Part shown: one piece after another, positions 33,457 through 44,063 of the stretch
Position numbering within the stretch: the first letter of the stretch is position 1
How the letters are laid out: every line of letters begins with the position of its first letter
From: an uncultured Bacteroidota bacterium
Lineage (GTDB): Bacteria; Bacteroidota; Rhodothermia; Rhodothermales; UBA10348
NCBI GenBank assembly: GCA_937876355.1
Contig: CALFHN010000016.1
Location: 1 to 53,530, forward strand
Direction: 5' to 3'
DNA: 53,530 nt
Position numbers and translations under genes: made by a program
Notes under the pieces: model-generated
Told to the model about the DNA's origin: nothing
Databases searched by the model: none
Seen by the model: only the letters and a program-made list of their open reading frames with translations

Positions 33457-34284
33457 TTAAGAGAGGTCCAGTTCCAAAAAACGAGCGATTGCAGAAAGAT
33501 ACGCCTTGGGCTGCTCTAGATGGACATTGTGCCCCGCTTGTTTGATTACACATGGGGTAATTTGAGGAAATTTTTGGCCCAACTCATGACCAATACGTTC
33601 GTATTTGGAGTCTTGTTCACCCGCAATGAATAGCGTTTTATGCTCAAATGGCCCATTTTGCGGCTGTCTACCTAAAGAAAATCCTGTAATAGCTGCCGCT
33701 AATTTTTGAGGATTGTTGACTTGTGCAGATGCGATTTTCACAGCAGTTTCGAGCGCCAAATTTTTCTGAAGCGATTTAAAAACAGGCTGCTTATACCATT
33801 CGCTGAGTACGTTTGGCCAGTCCGTCTGAATCAATTCTGCCCATTGGGCATCACTTTTTTCCCTCTGGGACCGTTCTAGGTTGGAAACGAGGCCTGGATG
33901 GCTGGATTCCAATATCACTTTCCGAACGCGAGAAGGAAATTTCTGGGTGAAGTGCATGGCGACCCTGCCGCCCATCGAATAACCGACAACATCTACTACA
34001 GGCACATCCAATTCCGAAAGGGTTTTGTCCAATAGGACACTGGTTTCTTCAAACCAAGGCTCTTCGGAGGCAAGGGAGGACGATCCTCCATGACCCGGCA
34101 GATCTATTCCAAGCGTCGGAGCGGCTAGCCCCCTCGCGATGGGGGCCCATTGCGAGGCGTATCCCATAAAACCGTGCAAAAACAAAACCGGTATGTGCCC
34201 TCCTCGACTGGTTTGATCCAAGCGGCGATCGATAAACCAGGTAACAGATAACTCACTGTCTGAACTCATAAGGCGTAAACTCAT
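33457..34284 (-). CDS. menH: SHCHC synthase-like alpha/beta hydrolase
   Basis: A 275-residue alpha/beta hydrolase with [13 protein letters not shown], the nucleophile elbow [12 protein letters not shown] and the catalytic His in [10 protein letters not shown]. The motif pattern and position (menD to menB) fit MenH, which removes pyruvate from SEPHCHC to give SHCHC. Its start overlaps the stop of the preceding 142-residue gene by four bases (ATGA). Alone it could be another esterase; the operon makes MenH likely. Confidence 0.88.
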
Positions 34285-34709
34285 ATCGTTCCGATTTTTT
34301 GAATCTCGGCGTTCATGTTTTTAGGCCTTCCAAAAATGGCCTTTCCCTCTTTCGAATGAGCACACGGATAGTCTTTTTCAACGATCACCGTGAGAACCCG
34401 GCCCGTTACGGGTTGAAAATCGAATTCAAAACCAACTAAATCATTTGAATCCCATCCATTGGTCCACGACCGCGGAATTTCCAACTTGGTGTGTCCTTCG
34501 GTTAATTTGGCAACAGGTCTCCCCGTTTTTGGAGTCAGAGTCGTTGATTTTCCTAAAGGTTGATCGCCCCGAATTAAATGGAGAGAGAACCCAATTTCCG
34601 AAGTTCCGATTTGTATCCGAGACGATATTGTACCGTTTTGAATGAGCTCAGACACTTCCTCTTGAGCCAAACGAAGGCGAAGCAACTGCTCGTGAATTCG
34701 AATTTTCAT
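34281..34709 (-). CDS. Conserved-looking protein of unknown function in the men operon
   Basis: A 142-residue soluble protein starting MKIRIHEQLLRLRLAQEEV. Beta strands dominate after an N-terminal helix; a KDYPCAHSKEGKA segment near the C-terminus has a Cys-x-His pair that could bind metal. I half-recognise it as the DUF7009 family of this phylum, without certainty. It sits between menD (14 bases downstream of its stop-to-start gap) and menH (four-base overlap), so it is made with the pathway. A catalytic role, such as the missing DHNA-CoA thioesterase, is not indicated by its sequence. Confidence 0.75.
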   Translation of the reverse strand: MKIRIHEQLLRLRLAQEEVSELIQNGTISSRIQIGTSEIGFSLHLIRGDQPLGKSTTLTPKTGRPVAKLTEGHTKLEIPRSWTNGWDSNDLVGFEFDFQPVTGRVLTVIVEKDYPCAHSKEGKAIFGRPKNMNAEIQKIGTI

Positions 34710-34723
34710 GAAACTGAATTGGG

Positions 34724-36553
34724 CTAAAGCGTTCCTGGCTTCGAACTTGAGGATAAACGCTGATGTAGTGCCGCATTTAAGCGTCTCGCTTCGTTCACGT
34801 TTTTGTCTCTATCTGTTACGATTTCAATTATGATGGAGCGGCTCTTGGATACGGCCCGCAATAAATCGGCCTCAAAATCAGACGTTGACCGCGGATTAGC
34901 ATAATCCAACCCAAACATTTTTGCAGCTGATTCAAATCCAAGCCCATGGGGAGTTCCGAAGAGCGGTTCAAACGAAGCCGTGTATTGTTGTACGGGCAAA
35001 TACGAAAAAATGCCACCTCCGTTATTGTTGATGACGACAACTATGGCTCCAACCGATGCGCACAATGCCAACGAATTGACATCGTATAACAAAGCGAGAT
35101 CTCCCAAAAAAACGATTGGGCGTTTTTGCAATCCTGATGCAAACCCAACGGCCGATGCAATAGTGCCGTCTATGCCGCTGGCCCCTCGATTTGTTAATAC
35201 AGGGACCGAATTCCCATCCAATACTCCGAAAGAATCCATGTGGCGCACTGAGTTACTGGATCCAAGCGTAAGGGCCCCATTTGGCGGAAGATGTCGGCTC
35301 AGGATCGTTGCCGCCGCTTGTTCGGTAAGCTGAGTGCTCAAAACATCACTATTTAGCCATGCATGAGCTTTCGCGCTAAACCCCTTCCAGACCTTCTGCC
35401 AGGCTCGCCTATCGGCGATGAGCGAAGCTTCCTTCGGCCCTGTGCTCGCGTCTGCCCAGTAGTCAAATACTGCGACTGGGTCGGCTTCCAAGCGGTTGGT
35501 GGCGATGTGGGATGGGTCTACGCGCCGCTCACGATGATCCACCACGACATATGAGGCGGGTTGAAAATCACTGAGAAGCCTCAATAATTTTTTAGAAAGG
35601 GGCGACGCTCCAAATTGGACCACACAATCAGGGCGAAATTCTCGGACTTTTTCGCTGGCAAGGAGAATATCAATATGGGCTATTCCACATCCAGGTGAAC
35701 TACTATTTGACTCCATCCCAAGTCGGGCTTGGGAACTAATATCAGCCACAAAAACGGCTCCGATTCGCTGGCATAAGGCCTCTGCTGCTCGAGCGATCAG
35801 ACCTCCTTCCCCGCTCAGTCTGCCAAGGATAATCATGGGTCGATGTGAGGCAGCCATCGCCGACTCCAAAACGGAAACCAATTCCTTCACCTCTAATCCG
35901 GCTGAGTCTTTCGAAAAAGCCAAAGAACCAGGCGAATACGCTGTAAATGGAGTTTTTTTAGATTCCCAATCCAAAAATCTTGCAGATTGAATTGGAACGT
36001 ACTCTTCGTGCGAAGGAGCAAGCGGTTCGCGAAACATGCAGTTCAGGTGGACGGGTCCGTCCTTTGAACGAAAAATGGCCTGATCTACGGTCGTGAGTAC
36101 AAAAGTTGGGTCAATGACATCTGTAGGCGCTGGCAAGTCAAAAAACCAACGGACAGATCGTCCAAAAATGTGGTCCTGTCGAATTGCTTGATTGGCATCA
36201 GCATCTCGAAGTTCAGGGGGCCTGTCTGCAGTTAATAGAATCATGGGCGTGGATTCTAAATCCGCTTCAATAACCGCTGGATGTCCGTTAGCCACGGCTG
36301 TACCAGATGTTGTTATCCAAACAGCAGGACGCTGGGTTGCCTTTCCGTAGCCCAACGCCAAAAACGCAGATCCGCGCTCATCAAAATGCATGGTCAGACC
36401 GCACTCGGGATGATCGTAAACGGCCATAACCAGTGGGGTTGATCGTGAACCAGGCGATGCGAAAAAGGTCGTTACTCCATTGCGCACCAACTCCTCGACT
36501 ATTAAGTCGGCCCAGAATCGATTCCTATTTGGTGCTTTTAAGTGCAAGTCCAA
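34724..36553 (-). CDS. menD: SEPHCHC synthase
   Basis: A 609-residue thiamine diphosphate enzyme that joins isochorismate and 2-oxoglutarate. The activating Glu is in HFDERGSAFLALGYGK, followed by TSGTAVANGHPAVIEAD and, in the C-terminal domain, the cofactor-binding region around FLGDLALLYDVNSL and NNNGGGIFSYLP. It overlaps the end of menF by 29 bases, so translation is coupled. The start at 36553 gives the usual N-terminus (NRFWADLIVEELVRNGV). Confidence 0.95.
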   Translation of the reverse strand: MDLHLKAPNRNRFWADLIVEELVRNGVTTFFASPGSRSTPLVMAVYDHPECGLTMHFDERGSAFLALGYGKATQRPAVWITTSGTAVANGHPAVIEADLESTPMILLTADRPPELRDADANQAIRQDHIFGRSVRWFFDLPAPTDVIDPTFVLTTVDQAIFRSKDGPVHLNCMFREPLAPSHEEYVPIQSARFLDWESKKTPFTAYSPGSLAFSKDSAGLEVKELVSVLESAMAASHRPMIILGRLSGEGGLIARAAEALCQRIGAVFVADISSQARLGMESNSSSPGCGIAHIDILLASEKVREFRPDCVVQFGASPLSKKLLRLLSDFQPASYVVVDHRERRVDPSHIATNRLEADPVAVFDYWADASTGPKEASLIADRRAWQKVWKGFSAKAHAWLNSDVLSTQLTEQAAATILSRHLPPNGALTLGSSNSVRHMDSFGVLDGNSVPVLTNRGASGIDGTIASAVGFASGLQKRPIVFLGDLALLYDVNSLALCASVGAIVVVINNNGGGIFSYLPVQQYTASFEPLFGTPHGLGFESAAKMFGLDYANPRSTSDFEADLLRAVSKSRSIIIEIVTDRDKNVNEARRLNAALHQRLSSSSKPGTL

Positions 36554-37850
36554 GGATTTTCGTGAAATCAGTAATTTTTTGTTCTATTTCCAACCATTCT
36601 GATCCAGGATCGGATCCGTTGACCAGTCCCGCGCCCGAAAACAGAGAAAGTGTCTTTTTGTGCAACACACCACATCGAAGGGCCACCGCAAATTCTGCAG
36701 AATCCCTACCCAGCCATCCGACGGGCCCAGCATACCAGCCACGGTCAAAATCTTCCAAAGAATTAATGGCGTGAAGCGCAACATCAGTTGGCTCTCCACA
36801 AACGGCCGGAGTAGGATGAAGAAGCTTCAACAGATGTAGGTCAGTAATGCCTTTTTCTAGCGTGCCGGAAAGTCGAGAATATAAGTGTCTCCCTTGCGCT
36901 AGCCTCATTTCAGATGCAACCTCATCCACTTCCACCGTCCGACATACCTCCTGAAGGACATTTCGAATCCGATTACGGACAAAAGCATGCTCTCGTTGAT
37001 CTTTTTCGCTGGCTAGAAGGGATTCACAGTATGCCTGATCGTCGTCTTTTGTATCTCCCCGAGGGCGCGTACCGGCAACTGCTTCGCTTATAACTTCCCG
37101 CCCTCGCCGGAAAAACAATCGCTCTGGAGAGGCCCCTAAGAAAGCACCTTCTTCAGACTCAAAAAGGAAATGGAAACAATTCGGAGTTGCTTCCTGGAGC
37201 ACATTCAGTAATTCAACCGGCTCTGGTTCCTCGGCAAAGGAAAAGTCAACTCGCCGTGCCAAAACGACTTTCTGGAGAACTTCCCTCTTGAAGGCATCGA
37301 TGGACCATCCTACTTGGGATTTCCAGCCCTCAAAACTTGGAATTTCTACTCTGGCCGTTGGGATTGGAACAGTATTAGGTGAGAATTGATGGGGAAACAC
37401 GAGTTCATCTGCCTGGTCCAAAATGATTTGGGCGAGCCCCTGATCTTCTGGAAAGACTAGATTACAACATAATTGTGTCCTTTCACCTCTGCAATGTAAT
37501 TCAAACCTGGGCAAGACAAATCTCCAGGCTGGAAATCCGAACCAGTCCCTATCCGTATCATGGCTTAAATCGAATCGCATACCCCCGTACAGCCTAAAAT
37601 CTGCTCCGGGACGTTCTAGAAAGTCGTCAATTTCCTTCTCCAACAGGACATAGTCGGGGCGGGTATCTCCCGACAGAACTTTTGCGATTCCGCACATGGC
37701 CACTCGTTCGTCAGCGTGCCTTCCTCTCCAATACAATCGTTCAAGATGTTTCTGAGCGTTGAGCCATCGTAGCGGATCGACGTACGGAATAGGGATTTCA
37801 ATCCGCACCAACCTAGCTACTCCCGGTTCAAGCAACCCAAAATGATGCAT
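36525..37850 (-). CDS. menF: Isochorismate synthase
   Basis: About 441 residues of the chorismate-binding family. It turns chorismate into isochorismate, the entry to menaquinone. Motifs: ASPERLFFRRG, ISEAVAGTRPRG, the Glu-rich KDQREHAFV helix, LHPTPAVCGEP and the C-terminal GWYAGPVGWLG. The ATG at 37850 (MHHFGLLEPG) is preferred to a TTG at 37865. It is the first men gene, so the operon promoter should lie in 37866-38019; no clear consensus was found there. A siderophore-type isochorismate synthase is unlikely in this context. Confidence 0.92.
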   Translation of the reverse strand: MHHFGLLEPGVARLVRIEIPIPYVDPLRWLNAQKHLERLYWRGRHADERVAMCGIAKVLSGDTRPDYVLLEKEIDDFLERPGADFRLYGGMRFDLSHDTDRDWFGFPAWRFVLPRFELHCRGERTQLCCNLVFPEDQGLAQIILDQADELVFPHQFSPNTVPIPTARVEIPSFEGWKSQVGWSIDAFKREVLQKVVLARRVDFSFAEEPEPVELLNVLQEATPNCFHFLFESEEGAFLGASPERLFFRRGREVISEAVAGTRPRGDTKDDDQAYCESLLASEKDQREHAFVRNRIRNVLQEVCRTVEVDEVASEMRLAQGRHLYSRLSGTLEKGITDLHLLKLLHPTPAVCGEPTDVALHAINSLEDFDRGWYAGPVGWLGRDSAEFAVALRCGVLHKKTLSLFSGAGLVNGSDPGSEWLEIEQKITDFTKILGLALKSTK

Positions 37851-38019
37851 CAAAGCTGAGCGCAATCGGCTCTTCGGATTTGTGTTTAAGTCAGAGATGA
37901 TGATATGATCTTCGCGAGGTGTTTGGATAATATCCGACCAAATGAGAAGGAAGGCGATTAGTTATGCTGCAGGTGGGAGAATATACCCAATCTAAAACAA
38001 TGGAATGACCGAGAAAGTC

Positions 38020-38652
38020 CTACTTTTTTTGTCGTCTATAGGTCATGATTTCTATTATTCTTTTTTCCATACGGTCCAATTCGGGAAGAGGTGCACCGTA
38101 TTTCTGAGAAGCACTGACCAACACGTTTCTTAGAATTTGATCATGAGTAGGAATTTGAGAGATGGAACGGCTAAGAATTCGAACGAAATAGGACGTTAGC
38201 GCCTTAATTACTTGCCACCTCAAAAACACAAACCCAATCAATCCAATTCCGAGGGCATCAAATTGCCCGGAACTGGCAAAAAAACTAAGCACCATCACGT
38301 AAAGAAGCCCCTGGACCACTACGTGATTCATGAACCTGATTATGGGAATTAACCAAAATATGACTACTGATGGAGAAAGAACAGCCATTATCAGGTAAAT
38401 CAATACCGAGCCAACAGCCGATTCCCAAGGTTCAGCGATCAACATTAGACAGGGCAATGTCCAAATCGTAATGGTCACTGGGATTCGGCTCCAATCACCG
38501 GCTTTTTGAAACAATGTTTCTAAGCCAATCTTGTCGATGATTTTCGGGGCAAATTCTAGAAGGTCTTTAACAGACGTGTGGTACCAAATGCCATCCGAAG
38601 TAAAAATGCCACTTGGCATTTCTACATACGTGAGCTTCGACGTTTTAGTCAT
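38020..38652 (-). CDS. Unknown membrane protein of the BMC-YbbR operon
   Basis: A 210-residue protein with about four membrane helices (about 57-75, 80-103, 107-128 and 132-150), flanked by a soluble N-terminal segment of about 55 residues and a charged C-terminus (RMEKRIIEIMTYRRQKK). Its start overlaps the YbbR-like gene stop by eight bases, so it is the last gene of the shell protein operon. No family is recognised. A role at the membrane with the YbbR-like protein is an inference from overlap alone. Confidence 0.75.
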   Translation of the reverse strand: MTKTSKLTYVEMPSGIFTSDGIWYHTSVKDLLEFAPKIIDKIGLETLFQKAGDWSRIPVTITIWTLPCLMLIAEPWESAVGSVLIYLIMAVLSPSVVIFWLIPIIRFMNHVVVQGLLYVMVLSFFASSGQFDALGIGLIGFVFLRWQVIKALTSYFVRILSRSISQIPTHDQILRNVLVSASQKYGAPLPELDRMEKRIIEIMTYRRQKK

Positions 38653-39625
38653 TGCGAATATCGTAGTATTTCAATCCTACCGGATCAATCCTAGCTTCGC
38701 GAACGGCCAGCCCATTGGGCAAGTGTATCATTGGGTAAACTAGCCCTTGTTCATCCCTGCGCGTATCTGAATAGGGTACAAAAACGTAAAAGTCTTCGGC
38801 CGCTAAGGAAGAGTCATACTGCGACAACGGAATTAAATAAGTAACGTCCACAGTTGACGGCACGAAAGAGACTTGTTCAGTTTCACCTAGACCAATTGCC
38901 CGAACTTCAATGGTCCGTGTCGCTTCAGTAAATTCTGTAATATTGGCTCTCACGGTTACTTCTGAGACATCAAACCCAACTAGGCCTTCAAGAGAATCTG
39001 AAATAGCAATCGTGGCGAAGAGGGAGTCTGCGAGCTGTCCCAATTGTCGCTTTTGAGTATGCCACATCGTGATTCCACTAATAATCGAAGCGGCTCCAGA
39101 AATTGTTATAGAATCGGGCGAAATCGAAACTTGTCCGATCATGCCAAAACCTGGAGAAAAATCTAATTCTATGACGGGTACTATCGGTACTTTTCGGTAA
39201 TCTCGATTTTCGATTGAAATTTGTGTGGTACGTGGAGTAACCGTTTGTAGGCTGACATTATTGACCACCTCAGAAGCTACAAGTAACAAATCTACCTCGC
39301 CCGCCTCAGCATTAATCGGGACTACAGGTGGATTATAATAAAGCCGTAAAACTTGAACTCCTTCTCCTTCCACTTGGATTCTAATGGACGAAGGAGGAAG
39401 AGCAGAAAGTGCTTTATCACTAGGTAAATTTCGAATTTCAGTCTGGAAATCTATGATTTGCGTGTACGTTTCCTGCATAGAAAAGGCAAACCATAGTATA
39501 AAAGCAGCCAGAACACACATGGAAATGACAAATCCCTTGTTCTCGGGTTCACGGGAATCAAATTTTGAGCCCTGACGAATCGGCGAAAACAACGACCTGA
39601 TTCTATCGGTAAAGGACATGGTCAT
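38645..39625 (-). CDS. YbbR-like domain protein
   Basis: A 326-residue protein with one N-terminal membrane helix (about 30-50) and an outward-facing region of beta-rich YbbR-like repeats (about 55-325; segments such as VPIVPVIELDFSPGF and DSITISGAASII). In Firmicutes, YbbR (CdaR) anchors and regulates the diadenylate cyclase CdaA; in Bacteroidota similar proteins occur without it. No cyclase is next to it here. It lies 23 bases after the longer BMC gene. Confidence 0.82.
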   Translation of the reverse strand: MTMSFTDRIRSLFSPIRQGSKFDSREPENKGFVISMCVLAAFILWFAFSMQETYTQIIDFQTEIRNLPSDKALSALPPSSIRIQVEGEGVQVLRLYYNPPVVPINAEAGEVDLLLVASEVVNNVSLQTVTPRTTQISIENRDYRKVPIVPVIELDFSPGFGMIGQVSISPDSITISGAASIISGITMWHTQKRQLGQLADSLFATIAISDSLEGLVGFDVSEVTVRANITEFTEATRTIEVRAIGLGETEQVSFVPSTVDVTYLIPLSQYDSSLAAEDFYVFVPYSDTRRDEQGLVYPMIHLPNGLAVREARIDPVGLKYYDIRND

Positions 39626-39648
39626 GATATCTCCTCGCCGCTTTGTGC

Positions 39649-40098
39649 TTATTTGCGATCGCGCAGAGCATCTAGCAACTGATTCTTATTGGCTCTAGCA
39701 ATTTCACGGCCTTGAAGGGACAGGTTATCCAAAGTCCGAGCCAAAGTCCGAAGTTCTCGAACCGTCATTTCCTCATACGTAGATGACGTGTGGGCTGTTT
39801 TCGCCACCGTTTTCTGAGGTTGTGATTGCATGGCTCGCACATCGTCAGAAGGCCGTGCGATTACATGAGAGGACAATACCTCTCCAATTCGTCTCGCAGC
39901 ATGCGTGCCCGCTTCGACAGCCGCTTGAACCGCTGCCGTTTCACCGGTTATCTGAACGGTCATCATGGCTGCGTCAGTCCGTTCCAAGGCAACCAATGAA
40001 ACCTGAGCAGTTTTCAGCATGGCGTCCGCAGCCTCTAGGGCGGCGATCAATCCTCGGGTTTCAATGAAACCCATCGCTTCATATACGGCTTGGGCCAT
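39649..40098 (-). CDS. BMC-H shell protein with Rho_N/SAP-like tail
   Basis: A 149-residue protein. Residues 4-88 are a complete BMC (hexamer) domain: GFIETRGLIAALEAADAMLK, with the conserved edge Lys29, and IGEVLSSHVIARP at the end. The pore loop, where most shell hexamers carry a Gly-rich motif, reads ERTDAAMM (39-46), so the pore should be larger-sided or closed and acidic/hydrophobic. After a Gln/Thr linker (89-107) comes a tail (108-149) with the MTVRELRTLAR...GREI...NKNQLLDALR pattern of helix-extended-helix Rho_N/SAP modules, which can bind nucleic acid or proteins. It lies 43 bases after the other BMC-H gene. No pentamer or cargo enzyme is in the window. Confidence 0.88.
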   Translation of the reverse strand: MAQAVYEAMGFIETRGLIAALEAADAMLKTAQVSLVALERTDAAMMTVQITGETAAVQAAVEAGTHAARRIGEVLSSHVIARPSDDVRAMQSQPQKTVAKTAHTSSTYEEMTVRELRTLARTLDNLSLQGREIARANKNQLLDALRDRK

Positions 40099-40141
40099 AC
40101 TGATTCACGTTGTAAAAATGGAGACTTAGGGTCCGAATGGA

Positions 40142-40435
40142 TTAGCTATCCAATCCGGAAGGCAAAATGGACTCCACGTCGGAGTGCGGACGAGGGATAA
40201 CGTGAACAGAAACCAATTCTCCCACGCGTTCGGCCGCTGCTGCGCCCGCATCGGTAGCCGCTTTAACCGCACCGACATCTCCTCTAACCATCACAGTTAC
40301 ATATCCTCCACCAATTTTTTCCTTTCCAATGAGGTGGACTTTTGCTGCTTTGACCATAGCATCGGCGGCTTCAATGGCACCAACCAATCCTTTAGTCTCG
40401 ATCATCCCAAGAGCGATTCCGTAATCTTCTGACAT
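40142..40435 (-). CDS. Canonical BMC-H shell protein
   Basis: A 97-residue single-domain shell hexamer of the PduA/EutM/CsoS1/CcmK type. Hallmarks are [23 protein letters not shown] with edge Lys29, a Gly-rich pore KIGGG (40-44), and the PRPH edge motif (81-84). Such hexamers tile into the flat faces of bacterial microcompartments. It is the first gene of an operon with the longer BMC-H, a YbbR-like protein and a membrane protein. No carboxysome, Pdu, Eut or glycyl-radical enzyme gene is near it, so it is an orphan or satellite shell locus. Confidence 0.95.
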
Positions 40436-40603
40436 TTCGAGTTCGTGTATAGTCGAGATGAGTTTCCGAACCAGATGCCTTCACCCGAAGACCTCTGTTA
40501 GGGAGCACCCAGCCTTCGCCGGAGCACGCCATTCGGTTAAGCCTTGAATATAGACCTACTTCTACCCGTTTGTCAAAGATTCAGGTGTCCGATCTCATAT
40601 GAA

Positions 40604-40629
40604 TTGAGTATACTCCCGCAATAATTTTG
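40604..40629 (+). promoter_or_regulatory. Candidate Bacteroidota-type promoter of the first 2-epimerase gene
   Basis: TAATTTTG at 40622-40629 matches the TAnnTTTG minus-7 element of this phylum, with TTG at 40604-40606 upstream, 24 bases before the ATG at 40653. The spacing is shorter than typical, so this is a weak call. The 217-base divergent gap also has a direct repeat GGAGCAC (40502-40508 and 40521-40527) and a small minus-strand reading frame (40392-40532) that overlaps the start of the BMC-H gene. Confidence 0.35.
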
Positions 40630-40652: not shown

Positions 40653-41756
40653 ATGATCAAAGCTGCCCTTATTGCCGGTGCTCGGCCCAATTTCATTAAA
40701 ATTGCTGCTTTAGAAAAGGCCTTTTCAGATTCAGGTCAATTTTTAAACACGCTTATTCATACCGGGCAGCACTATGATGCTAAAATGAGTGACATTTTTT
40801 TTCGGCAACTTGGGATGCCCGAGCCCGAATTATTTCTGGGGATTGGGTCTGGTTCTCACGCCGCTCAAACCGCTGCTGTGATGGTGGAAACGGAAAAAGT
40901 TTTCTTGGCAAATAGGCCTGATGTGGTTGTGGTGGTGGGCGATGTGAATTCTACGGTGGCTACAGCCCTAACGGCAAAAAAGATGTGTATTCCCGTGGCC
41001 CACGTAGAAGCGGGCCTTCGTTCCTTCGATCCGGGGATGCCTGAAGAAATAAATCGAATTGTGACCGATGCCATCTCCGACCTGTTGTATGTGAGCGAGC
41101 CATCTGGATTGATGCATTTGAAAAACGAAGGTGTCCCGGACCATAAGGTGGTGTTTGCGGGCAATGTCATGATTGATTCGCTTCGTCGGTTCGAAGACAA
41201 AGCGAGAGCAACAAATTACTCGGAATCAATTGGGTTGAACGCGGGACGCTATTTTCTCATCACGGCTCATCGACCCGCCATGGTGGACAACGACGTACAT
41301 CTAGGGACTTTTGCCCGCTCGCTCCTCGGTTTGGCAGAAATGGGAGATGTTGTATTTCCGATCCACCCGCGGACTTCGAAACGACTAGAATCTATTGGAC
41401 TCGCAGCTTCCCTGGCCTCAAATCCGCGTATTCGCCTTACCGAGCCTATCGGCTATTTGGAGTTTATGAATTTAATGATGCACTCGGGTTTGATTGTAAC
41501 AGACAGCGGCGGAATCCAAGAGGAGTCAACGGCCCTTTCTGTGCCATGCGCTACGGTTCGACCCAATACAGAAAGGCCAGTTACGATTGAAGAAGGCACC
41601 AATGTGCTCATGAATCTCGACGTGGGTGAAATTACTGCTGCAGGAGAGAAGGCACTGTCAGGAAACTGGAAAAAAGGTCGTATTCCAGCTTTGTGGGACG
41701 GTAAAGCAGCCAACAGAATTGCTGAACACTTGGCGAATACGCTTTCGACGCTCTAA
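40653..41756 (+). CDS. wecB: UDP-N-acetylglucosamine 2-epimerase (non-hydrolysing), WecB-like
   Basis: A 367-residue enzyme of the two-Rossmann, GT-B-like epimerase family. It should convert UDP-GlcNAc to UDP-ManNAc for surface polysaccharide. Motifs: AGARPNFIK, HTGQHYD, VGDVNST, HVEAGLRS, PEEINR, HPRT, DSGGIQEE and the TERP loop typical of the GlcNAc form. The usual HRxEN motif is altered to HRPAM, keeping the catalytic His but losing the Glu and Asn. Its stop overlaps the stop of the next, convergent gene by four bases. Confidence 0.85.
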   Translation: MIKAALIAGARPNFIKIAALEKAFSDSGQFLNTLIHTGQHYDAKMSDIFFRQLGMPEPELFLGIGSGSHAAQTAAVMVETEKVFLANRPDVVVVVGDVNSTVATALTAKKMCIPVAHVEAGLRSFDPGMPEEINRIVTDAISDLLYVSEPSGLMHLKNEGVPDHKVVFAGNVMIDSLRRFEDKARATNYSESIGLNAGRYFLITAHRPAMVDNDVHLGTFARSLLGLAEMGDVVFPIHPRTSKRLESIGLAASLASNPRIRLTEPIGYLEFMNLMMHSGLIVTDSGGIQEESTALSVPCATVRPNTERPVTIEEGTNVLMNLDVGEITAAGEKALSGNWKKGRIPALWDGKAANRIAEHLANTLSTL

Positions 41757-43010: not shown

Positions 43011-44063
43011 TTAATTTGCCAAGAGCCTACAAATATGAGAGGACGCGCTGCCGCCGGCGACGGCGCCAAACATGGGTGCTGGCCCGTGAGGGTCGAGGGT
43101 GGTTGCTTTCACTATGGCCGTTGTATCCGCACCGACAATTCTGTTCCATCCTCCTTCAAGAGTTTCGGTCCATTCCGTTTCATCCCTCATCGTTATGCAA
43201 GGCGTGCCCAGCCAAACAGCTTCTTTTTGAAGGCCCCCAGAATCGGTAAGAACCTTGGTAGAATGGGTGATAAGGGTTAGCATCGCTAGGTAAGAAACGG
43301 GTTCAATGATGACTACGTTTTTGGAAACATCAAAGCGTTCCAACAGATTGCGTGTTCGTGGATGAACCGGCCAAACAATAGTTTCTGAGATCTGCCTAAA
43401 AGCATCTAGAATGGCCGAGAGTCGATTGGGGTCGTTCGTGTTTTCAGCACGATGCACAGTTGCTAAGAAAAATGTTGATATTTCTGGCCCAAGTATCTCG
43501 TGTAATGGACGGCTCTCCTGGGCTTTTTGTGCAAAGTACTTCGTCGCATCTAACATGACATCCCCAGTGAGGTGAACTCCTTTTGTCATTCCTTCCGTTT
43601 TGAGATGATCGACAGCCGTCTGAGTGGGACAAAAGAGGAGATCCGATAATCTATCGGTTACGATTCGGTTGATCTCTTCTGGCATGCGCATATTGAACGA
43701 CCGCAATCCAGCCTCTACATGCGCAACCGGAATCCCCAACTTGGCACCTACCATTGAAGAAGCAAGGGTGCTGTTGGTATCGCCGTAAACCACTAACCAA
43801 TCGGGTGGCCTTTTTTCAAGATATTTTTCGAGTTTGATCATCATGGCGCCTGTTTGGGCTCCGTGACTCCCTGAGCCAACATCAAGATTGATTTCTGGGG
43901 ACGGTATGCCTAATTCAGAAAAAAATATATCGCTCATTCCAGGATCATAGTGCTGTCCTGTGTGCACGATTCGTTCTTGAAATCCAGCTTTTTGAAACGC
44001 GTGACTAACAACTGCGGCTTTTATGAATTGGGGCCTAGCACCGACTACTGTTACGATATCCAT
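43011..44063 (-). CDS. UDP-sugar 2-epimerase, WbpI-like
   Basis: A 350-residue non-hydrolysing 2-epimerase with VGARPQFIKAAVV, HTGQHYDPGMSD, YGDTNST, HVEAGLRSFN, the intact HRAEN motif and DSGGLQKEA. The late loop reads RDETEWTETLEGGWN, as in the WbpI group that acts on UDP-2,3-diacetamido-glucuronate, unlike the TERP loop of the first epimerase in this window. So the two are different branches and probably make different sugars. It is three bases after the upstream glycosyltransferase gene. Confidence 0.85.
   Translation of the reverse strand: MDIVTVVGARPQFIKAAVVSHAFQKAGFQERIVHTGQHYDPGMSDIFFSELGIPSPEINLDVGSGSHGAQTGAMMIKLEKYLEKRPPDWLVVYGDTNSTLASSMVGAKLGIPVAHVEAGLRSFNMRMPEEINRIVTDRLSDLLFCPTQTAVDHLKTEGMTKGVHLTGDVMLDATKYFAQKAQESRPLHEILGPEISTFFLATVHRAENTNDPNRLSAILDAFRQISETIVWPVHPRTRNLLERFDVSKNVVIIEPVSYLAMLTLITHSTKVLTDSGGLQKEAVWLGTPCITMRDETEWTETLEGGWNRIVGADTTAIVKATTLDPHGPAPMFGAVAGGSASSHICRLLAN

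What the first reader, a model, noticed from the sequence alone, without database searches (positions are those of the whole stretch)
38020..40435. Orphan microcompartment shell operon linked to YbbR and an unknown membrane protein
Two BMC-H genes, a YbbR-like gene and a four-helix membrane protein follow each other with gaps of 43 and 23 bases and an 8-base overlap. Standard BMC loci also hold BMC-P pentamers, BMC-T trimers and signature enzymes; none is in this 53-kb window. Coupling of shell hexamers to membrane proteins suggests either a satellite locus feeding a distant BMC or a non-compartment use, such as a membrane-associated hexamer sheet.
Basis: partly seen in the sequence, partly recalled or inferred. 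Interest (0 to 1): 0.8.

Follow-up and report, generated by a model that had tools for sequence, protein, structure and literature searches.

The report
Scattered DNA-sugar microcompartment genes in Rhodothermales
The two shell genes are the face tiles of a bacterial protein organelle whose other parts lie in four other places of the same genome, and its enzymes suggest that it breaks down the deoxyribose of DNA while holding back the toxic acetaldehyde that this makes.

Summary
They are not an orphan operon or a membrane-bound hexamer sheet. The genome (a Rhodothermales MAG) has exactly two BMC-H genes, both here, and three BMC-P genes in two other places. In the order, BMC-H and BMC-P occur or are absent together (38 of 39 genomes). 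YbbR and the membrane protein persist side by side in genomes without any shell gene, so they are backbone neighbours. Two dispersed enzymes track the shell: a deoxyribose-phosphate aldolase (DeoC) with a conserved N-terminal helix and linker typical of encapsulation peptides, and a CoA-acylating acetaldehyde dehydrogenase with conserved C-terminal helices (20 of 21 shell-bearing genomes, 0 of 21 without). In other phyla the parts are joined: phosphopentomutase (DeoB)–BMC-P–BMC-P, BMC-P–DeoC, and BMC-H–BMC-H–AldDh. Best reading: a fragmented (FRAG-type) microcompartment, a class left without function in the 2021 catalogue, that converts deoxyribose-5-phosphate to glyceraldehyde-3-phosphate and acetyl-CoA. 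The parts list and linkages are shown; assembly, encapsulation and activity are inferred. PduL is absent. The BMC-H–YbbR adjacency also occurs in Ignavibacteria and stays unexplained.

The parts
40142..40435 (-). BMC-H1, 97 aa, EutM-like shell hexamer
   Evidence: Pfam BMC 2.9e-30; NCBIfam EutM model 138.9 bits over its cut-off of 133; about 86-99% identical across the order
39649..40098 (-). BMC-H2, 149 aa, shell hexamer with a C-terminal extension
   Evidence: Pfam BMC 2.1e-25; adjacent to BMC-H1 in all shell-bearing relatives with enough contig; alignment A3
39652..39771 (-). conserved SAP-like tail of BMC-H2 (TVRELRTLAR...GREIARANKNQLLDAL), joined by a variable linker
   Evidence: residues V113, L116, R117, A120, R121, G130, R131, A136, L141 invariant in 19 sequences; Pfam gives only a weak FANC_SAP match, E 0.036
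40547..40576 (-). probable promoter of the BMC-H operon: TTGACA-N18-TATATT
   Evidence: 11 of 12 consensus matches; conserved in aligned upstream regions of 11 genomes of the family; not found before the other four loci
40606..40615 (.). palindrome GAGTATACTC upstream of the promoter, possible operator
   Evidence: single copy in the window; core GTATAC kept in most of the aligned upstream regions; function not tested
38645..39625 (-). YbbR-like (CdaR-like) gene, backbone neighbour, probably co-transcribed but not a shell part
   Evidence: Pfam YbbR; present in all tested genomes without BMC
38020..38652 (-). 210-aa membrane protein of an unnamed conserved family, backbone neighbour
   Evidence: alignment A2; present in genomes without BMC; model pLDDT 88.7, no fold match at E<=0.001

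Best explanation
The two BMC-H genes encode the facet hexamers of one bacterial microcompartment whose genes are dispersed over five places in the genome: BMC-H1+BMC-H2 (this window), DeoB+BMC-P1+BMC-P2, BMC-P3, DeoC, and an acylating acetaldehyde dehydrogenase. DeoB makes deoxyribose-5-phosphate from the deoxyribose-1-phosphate of nucleoside salvage. [quoted passage not shown] The dehydrogenase, drawn in by its C-terminal helices, turns the acetaldehyde into acetyl-CoA inside the shell, so that the aldehyde does not leak. The hexamers have their own strong promoter, which could set the excess of facet tiles over pentamers. Shown: gene content, co-occurrence, conserved tails, linkages in other phyla. 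Inferred: assembly, encapsulation, flux, and the reason for separate promoters.
For: Two BMC-H and three BMC-P per genome, together or absent together, in 38 of 39 genomes. AldDh ortholog (>=63% identity) in 20 of 21 shell-bearing and 0 of 21 shell-less genomes; at family level 6/6 against 0/8, Fisher p 3e-4. Best NCBIfam of AldDh is acetylating acetaldehyde dehydrogenase (549 bits, below the cut-off of 620); DeoC and DeoB are over their cut-offs. DeoC has an N-terminal helix+linker in all shell-bearing Rhodothermales read, and none in the two shell-less genomes with the same DeoC class; also in 15 of the 16 other DeoC-bearing genomes, the 16th being unresolved; model: helix 3-23, low-confidence linker, then the aldolase barrel. 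AldDh has two conserved C-terminal helices in variable linkers. Linkages elsewhere: DeoB-BMC-P pair in 10 of 18 further genomes, BMC-P beside DeoC in 3, BMC-H1-BMC-H2-AldDh in two Gemmatimonadota. Distances of shell and cargo proteins follow YbbR (rho 0.56-0.69).
Against: No PduL phosphotransacylase in 31 genomes, so CoA recycling inside the shell is unexplained. No shared promoter motif joins the five loci. DeoB is not beside the BMC-P pair in every lineage. Hydrophobic moments are high for the terminal AldDh helix and moderate for DeoC, but not for the inner AldDh helix. RpiB, alcohol dehydrogenase and other cargo were not searched. The genome is a 92%-complete MAG, so a missed main locus is possible, though relatives with closed or near-closed chromosomes show the same pattern (G036, G017).
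Confidence: 0.78

Rival explanations
1. A dispersed compartment of the same parts, but with another main substrate: the AldDh serves a different aldehyde and DeoC is a minor or occasional cargo.
For: The AldDh scores below the equivalog cut-off for acetaldehyde dehydrogenase; close homologues sit in EUT-type loci with ethanolamine enzymes (L265); the catalogue leaves FRAG AldDhs uncharacterised (PMC8217296).
Against: DeoC with the terminal extension and DeoB linked to BMC-P are found across several phyla, and acetaldehyde is the product of DeoC and the expected substrate of this AldDh class.
Confidence: 0.13
2. The hexamers work with YbbR and c-di-AMP signalling at the membrane, as sheets or tethered shells.
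For: BMC-H1-BMC-H2-YbbR is kept in Rhodothermales and Ignavibacteria with different outer flanks; the BMC-P pair lies beside cdaA in many Rhodothermales.
Against: YbbR and the membrane protein occur without BMC genes; Gemmatimonadota, a Neomarinimicrobiota and other genomes have the same BMC-H pair without YbbR; pentamers accompany the hexamers, which points to closed shells.
Confidence: 0.06
3. Relict genes: shell and cargo genes left over from a broken BMC locus that no longer form a compartment.
For: Dispersal over five places; no PduL.
Against: All shell genes are intact, strongly conserved and lost together, over many families and phyla; decay would not keep this set whole.
Confidence: 0.03

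Closest known systems
FRAG-type BMCs (Sutter et al. 2021, PMC8217296)
   Same: Shell genes in several genomic places, three BMC-P genes, mostly remote from enzyme genes, hosts in Ignavibacteriae and related phyla and Gemmatimonadetes.
   Different: The catalogue gives FRAG no function and names no signature enzyme; here DeoC, DeoB and one AldDh are linked to the shell. The exact FRAG subtype could not be tested.
SPU (sugar phosphate utilization) BMCs (Axen et al. 2014, PMC4207490; Sutter et al. 2021)
   Same: DeoC-type aldolase plus aldehyde dehydrogenase, proposed use of DNA-derived deoxyribose.
   Different: SPU genes form one locus with RpiB and, in most, PduL; here the parts are dispersed, PduL is absent and RpiB was not tested.
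HO-type BMC (Haliangium ochraceum)
   Same: BMC-P triplet and, in some genomes, an unlinked DeoC with an EP-like N-terminal extension.
   Different: HO has a main locus with BMC-T proteins; here there is neither.
CdaA-CdaR(YbbR) c-di-AMP module
   Same: YbbR-like gene beside BMC-H; cdaA beside the BMC-P pair.
   Different: The two genes are on different contigs here, and YbbR occurs without any BMC gene.

Membership tests
Bacterial microcompartment (general) | BMC-H (pfam00936) hexamers | tested here: met
Bacterial microcompartment (general) | BMC-P (pfam03319) pentamers in the same genome | tested here: met
   three BMC-P; co-occurrence
Bacterial microcompartment (general) | cargo enzymes with encapsulation-peptide-like termini | tested here: met
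   sequence and model only: DeoC N-terminus, AldDh C-terminus
Bacterial microcompartment (general) | assembly into closed shells | not testable with these tools
   needs expression or microscopy
FRAG BMC | no BMC-H+BMC-P main locus; shell genes in several genomic locations | tested here: met
   three shell loci
FRAG BMC | BMC-P triplet | tested here: met
   three BMC-P genes per genome; their clade membership (gray/orange/other) not tested
FRAG BMC | shell genes mostly remote from known enzyme genes | tested here: met
   only DeoB is adjacent in many genomes
FRAG BMC | FRAG-specific shell protein colour classes | not testable with these tools
   the authors' HMMs are not held
SPU BMC | DeoC-type pfam01791 aldolase | tested here: met
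   TIGR00126 over cut-off, but unlinked to shell genes in this genome
SPU BMC | RpiB-type pfam02502 isomerase | not tested
SPU BMC | genes clustered in one locus | tested here: not met
   five places
SPU BMC | PduL phosphotransacylase (most members) | tested here: not met
   0 of 31 genomes

The most novel reading that the evidence does not exclude
FRAG-type microcompartments of Rhodothermota, Ignavibacteriota, Gemmatimonadota and related phyla, so far without function, are one widespread deoxyribose-5-phosphate metabolosome whose genes are regulated and inherited apart, with a SAP-tailed hexamer (BMC-H2) that may bind nucleic acid, and with an unexplained old link of the hexamer genes to ybbR.
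Probability: 0.5. Interest if true: 0.78.

Novelty: new variant of a known kind. Interest (0 to 1): 0.6.

Why it matters
The 2021 catalogue lists FRAG compartments as enigmatic, with no signature enzyme. The evidence here gives a specific, testable pathway (DeoB, DeoC with a targeting peptide, acylating AldDh) and shows a rare case in which all parts of an organelle stay together over long evolution without being clustered. If true, it adds a large group of environmental bacteria to those that use DNA sugar through a compartment.

Tried and rejected
(1) PF01791 hits near the third BMC-P were first taken for DeoC; they are class I fructose-bisphosphate aldolases (FbaB), and FbaB–AAA ATPase–amidohydrolases keep their order in shell-less genomes without the BMC-P, so they are background. 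(2) Membrane coupling through YbbR and the 210-aa protein: rejected as general, since both occur without BMC genes. (3) Riboswitch in the BMC-H leader: no Rfam match. (4) Shared promoter motif over the five loci: none seen. (5) Fold match for the membrane protein: none. (6) PduL: absent in 31 genomes.

Full report
Observation. In the whole assembly (2.9 Mb, 181 contigs, 92% complete) pfam00936 occurs only here, so there is no BMC-T and no other hexamer. Pfam03319 occurs three times elsewhere: a pair on C145 and a single copy on C109.

Co-occurrence. Of 60 relatives 38 have BMC-H, nearly always as one adjacent pair. Of 39 genomes tested for both, 26 have both and 12 have neither; one (G003, 89% complete) has BMC-P only. 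The usual BMC-P count is three, one pair and one single. A scan of named genomes shows that the order is Rhodothermales and that the same BMC-H pair occurs in Ignavibacteria, a Chlorobiales MAG, Neomarinimicrobiota, Gemmatimonadota and Delongbacteria, close to the host list of the FRAG class (PMC8217296). All 18 such genomes tested have BMC-P.

Neighbours. BMC-H1–BMC-H2–YbbR is followed by the membrane protein, menF and menD in most shell-bearing Rhodothermales. In shell-less genomes the same run exists without the BMC-H pair; in G032 the order epimerase–glycosyltransferase–YbbR–EamA–membrane protein–menF–menD is complete. Likewise the single BMC-P sits in an FbaB–AAA–amidohydrolase–MazG run whose FbaB–AAA–amidohydrolase part shell-less genomes keep without it. 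The shell genes are thus present or absent at fixed places of a conserved backbone. In Ignavibacteria the BMC-H pair is again followed by YbbR, but between YqgF and thymidylate kinase. That adjacency is older than the Rhodothermales backbone; it may be an inherited operon or a real link.

Cargo. A CoA-acylating AldDh (G000 C160:4110-5744) is the aldehyde dehydrogenase that tracks the shell. Its best NCBIfam model is acetylating acetaldehyde dehydrogenase. Past the catalytic domain it has two conserved helices, PWMEEIEARLRxRAGN and a terminal hxxLIxxFRK, in variable linkers. DeoC (G000 C65, 296 aa; TIGR00126 over cut-off) has an N-terminal helix, a variable linker and then the barrel in every shell-bearing Rhodothermales genome read, whereas the same DeoC class in shell-less G028 and G040 lacks this extension. 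In Ignavibacteria the N-termini (MDKQTILRLIEQVLNE, MNESKIDRIVNQVLTE) have the usual form of encapsulation peptides. The AlphaFold model of the own DeoC gives a helix at 3-23, a low-confidence linker and a confident barrel. [quoted passage not shown]

Linkage elsewhere. In this genome a GGDEF-like gene, deoB, BMC-P1 and BMC-P2 form one run. deoB lies upstream of the BMC-P pair, within about 1 kb, in 10 of the 18 genomes from the named scan, including Ignavibacteria and Gemmatimonadota. A BMC-P lies beside DeoC in three genomes, Gemmatimonadota and Neomarinimicrobiota among them. In two Gemmatimonadota, BMC-H1–BMC-H2 is followed at once by an AldDh 52% identical to ours, and a PduL-like sequence follows in L271 (PduL read by eye). 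So each dispersed part is joined to another somewhere. A rough estimate puts chance adjacency of one given pair within 1 kb on the same strand at about 3e-4 per genome.

Mechanism. I infer a shell of two kinds of hexamer and three kinds of pentamer around DeoC and AldDh, fed by DeoB from nucleoside salvage, which keeps acetaldehyde inside and releases glyceraldehyde-3-phosphate and acetyl-CoA. The BMC-H operon has a promoter (TTGACA-N18-TATATT) conserved in the upstream regions of 11 genomes of the family and not shared by the other loci; separate promoters may set tile numbers, but this is inference. CoA and NAD recycling are open: PduL is absent.

BMC-H2 tail. BMC-H2 ends in a conserved domain of about 40 residues with SAP-like sequence; Pfam support is weak, and solved structures match almost only the BMC domain. 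Nucleic-acid binding is a guess.

Membership. It meets the FRAG features that could be tested and works like an SPU compartment, but it fails two SPU features (clustering, PduL), so I do not file it as SPU. Distances between genomes for BMC-H2, AldDh and DeoC follow those of YbbR, which favours mostly vertical inheritance with loss in the lineages without shells.

Noticed in passing
window 40653-41756 and 43011-44063: Two UDP-GlcNAc 2-epimerase genes on opposite strands flank a glycosyltransferase next to the BMC-H genes; the first is divergent from BMC-H1 and shares its upstream region.
   Followed up: partly
window 38645-39625 and L059:7761-8564: YbbR (CdaR-like) lies beside the hexamer genes and CdaA beside the pentamer pair in many Rhodothermales; both halves of the c-di-AMP module border shell genes, which is unexplained.
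   Followed up: partly
L059:11082-12464: A 460-aa protein with N-terminal membrane segments and a degenerate GGDEF-like end overlaps deoB upstream of the BMC-P pair; a similar gene end precedes deoB in Ignavibacteria (L331).
   Followed up: partly
L265:3378-8997: A contig labelled Endozoicomonas holds an ethanolamine-type BMC locus whose BMC-H has the same kind of C-terminal tail and lies next to a related AldDh with a C-terminal helix.
   Followed up: no
window 33457-37865: Menaquinone genes (MenF, MenD, a 142-aa ORF between MenD and MenH, MenH) downstream of the membrane protein, in conserved order in relatives.
   Followed up: partly
window 40436-40546: A leader of roughly 110 bases precedes BMC-H1; it varies between relatives and matches no Rfam family.
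   Followed up: partly
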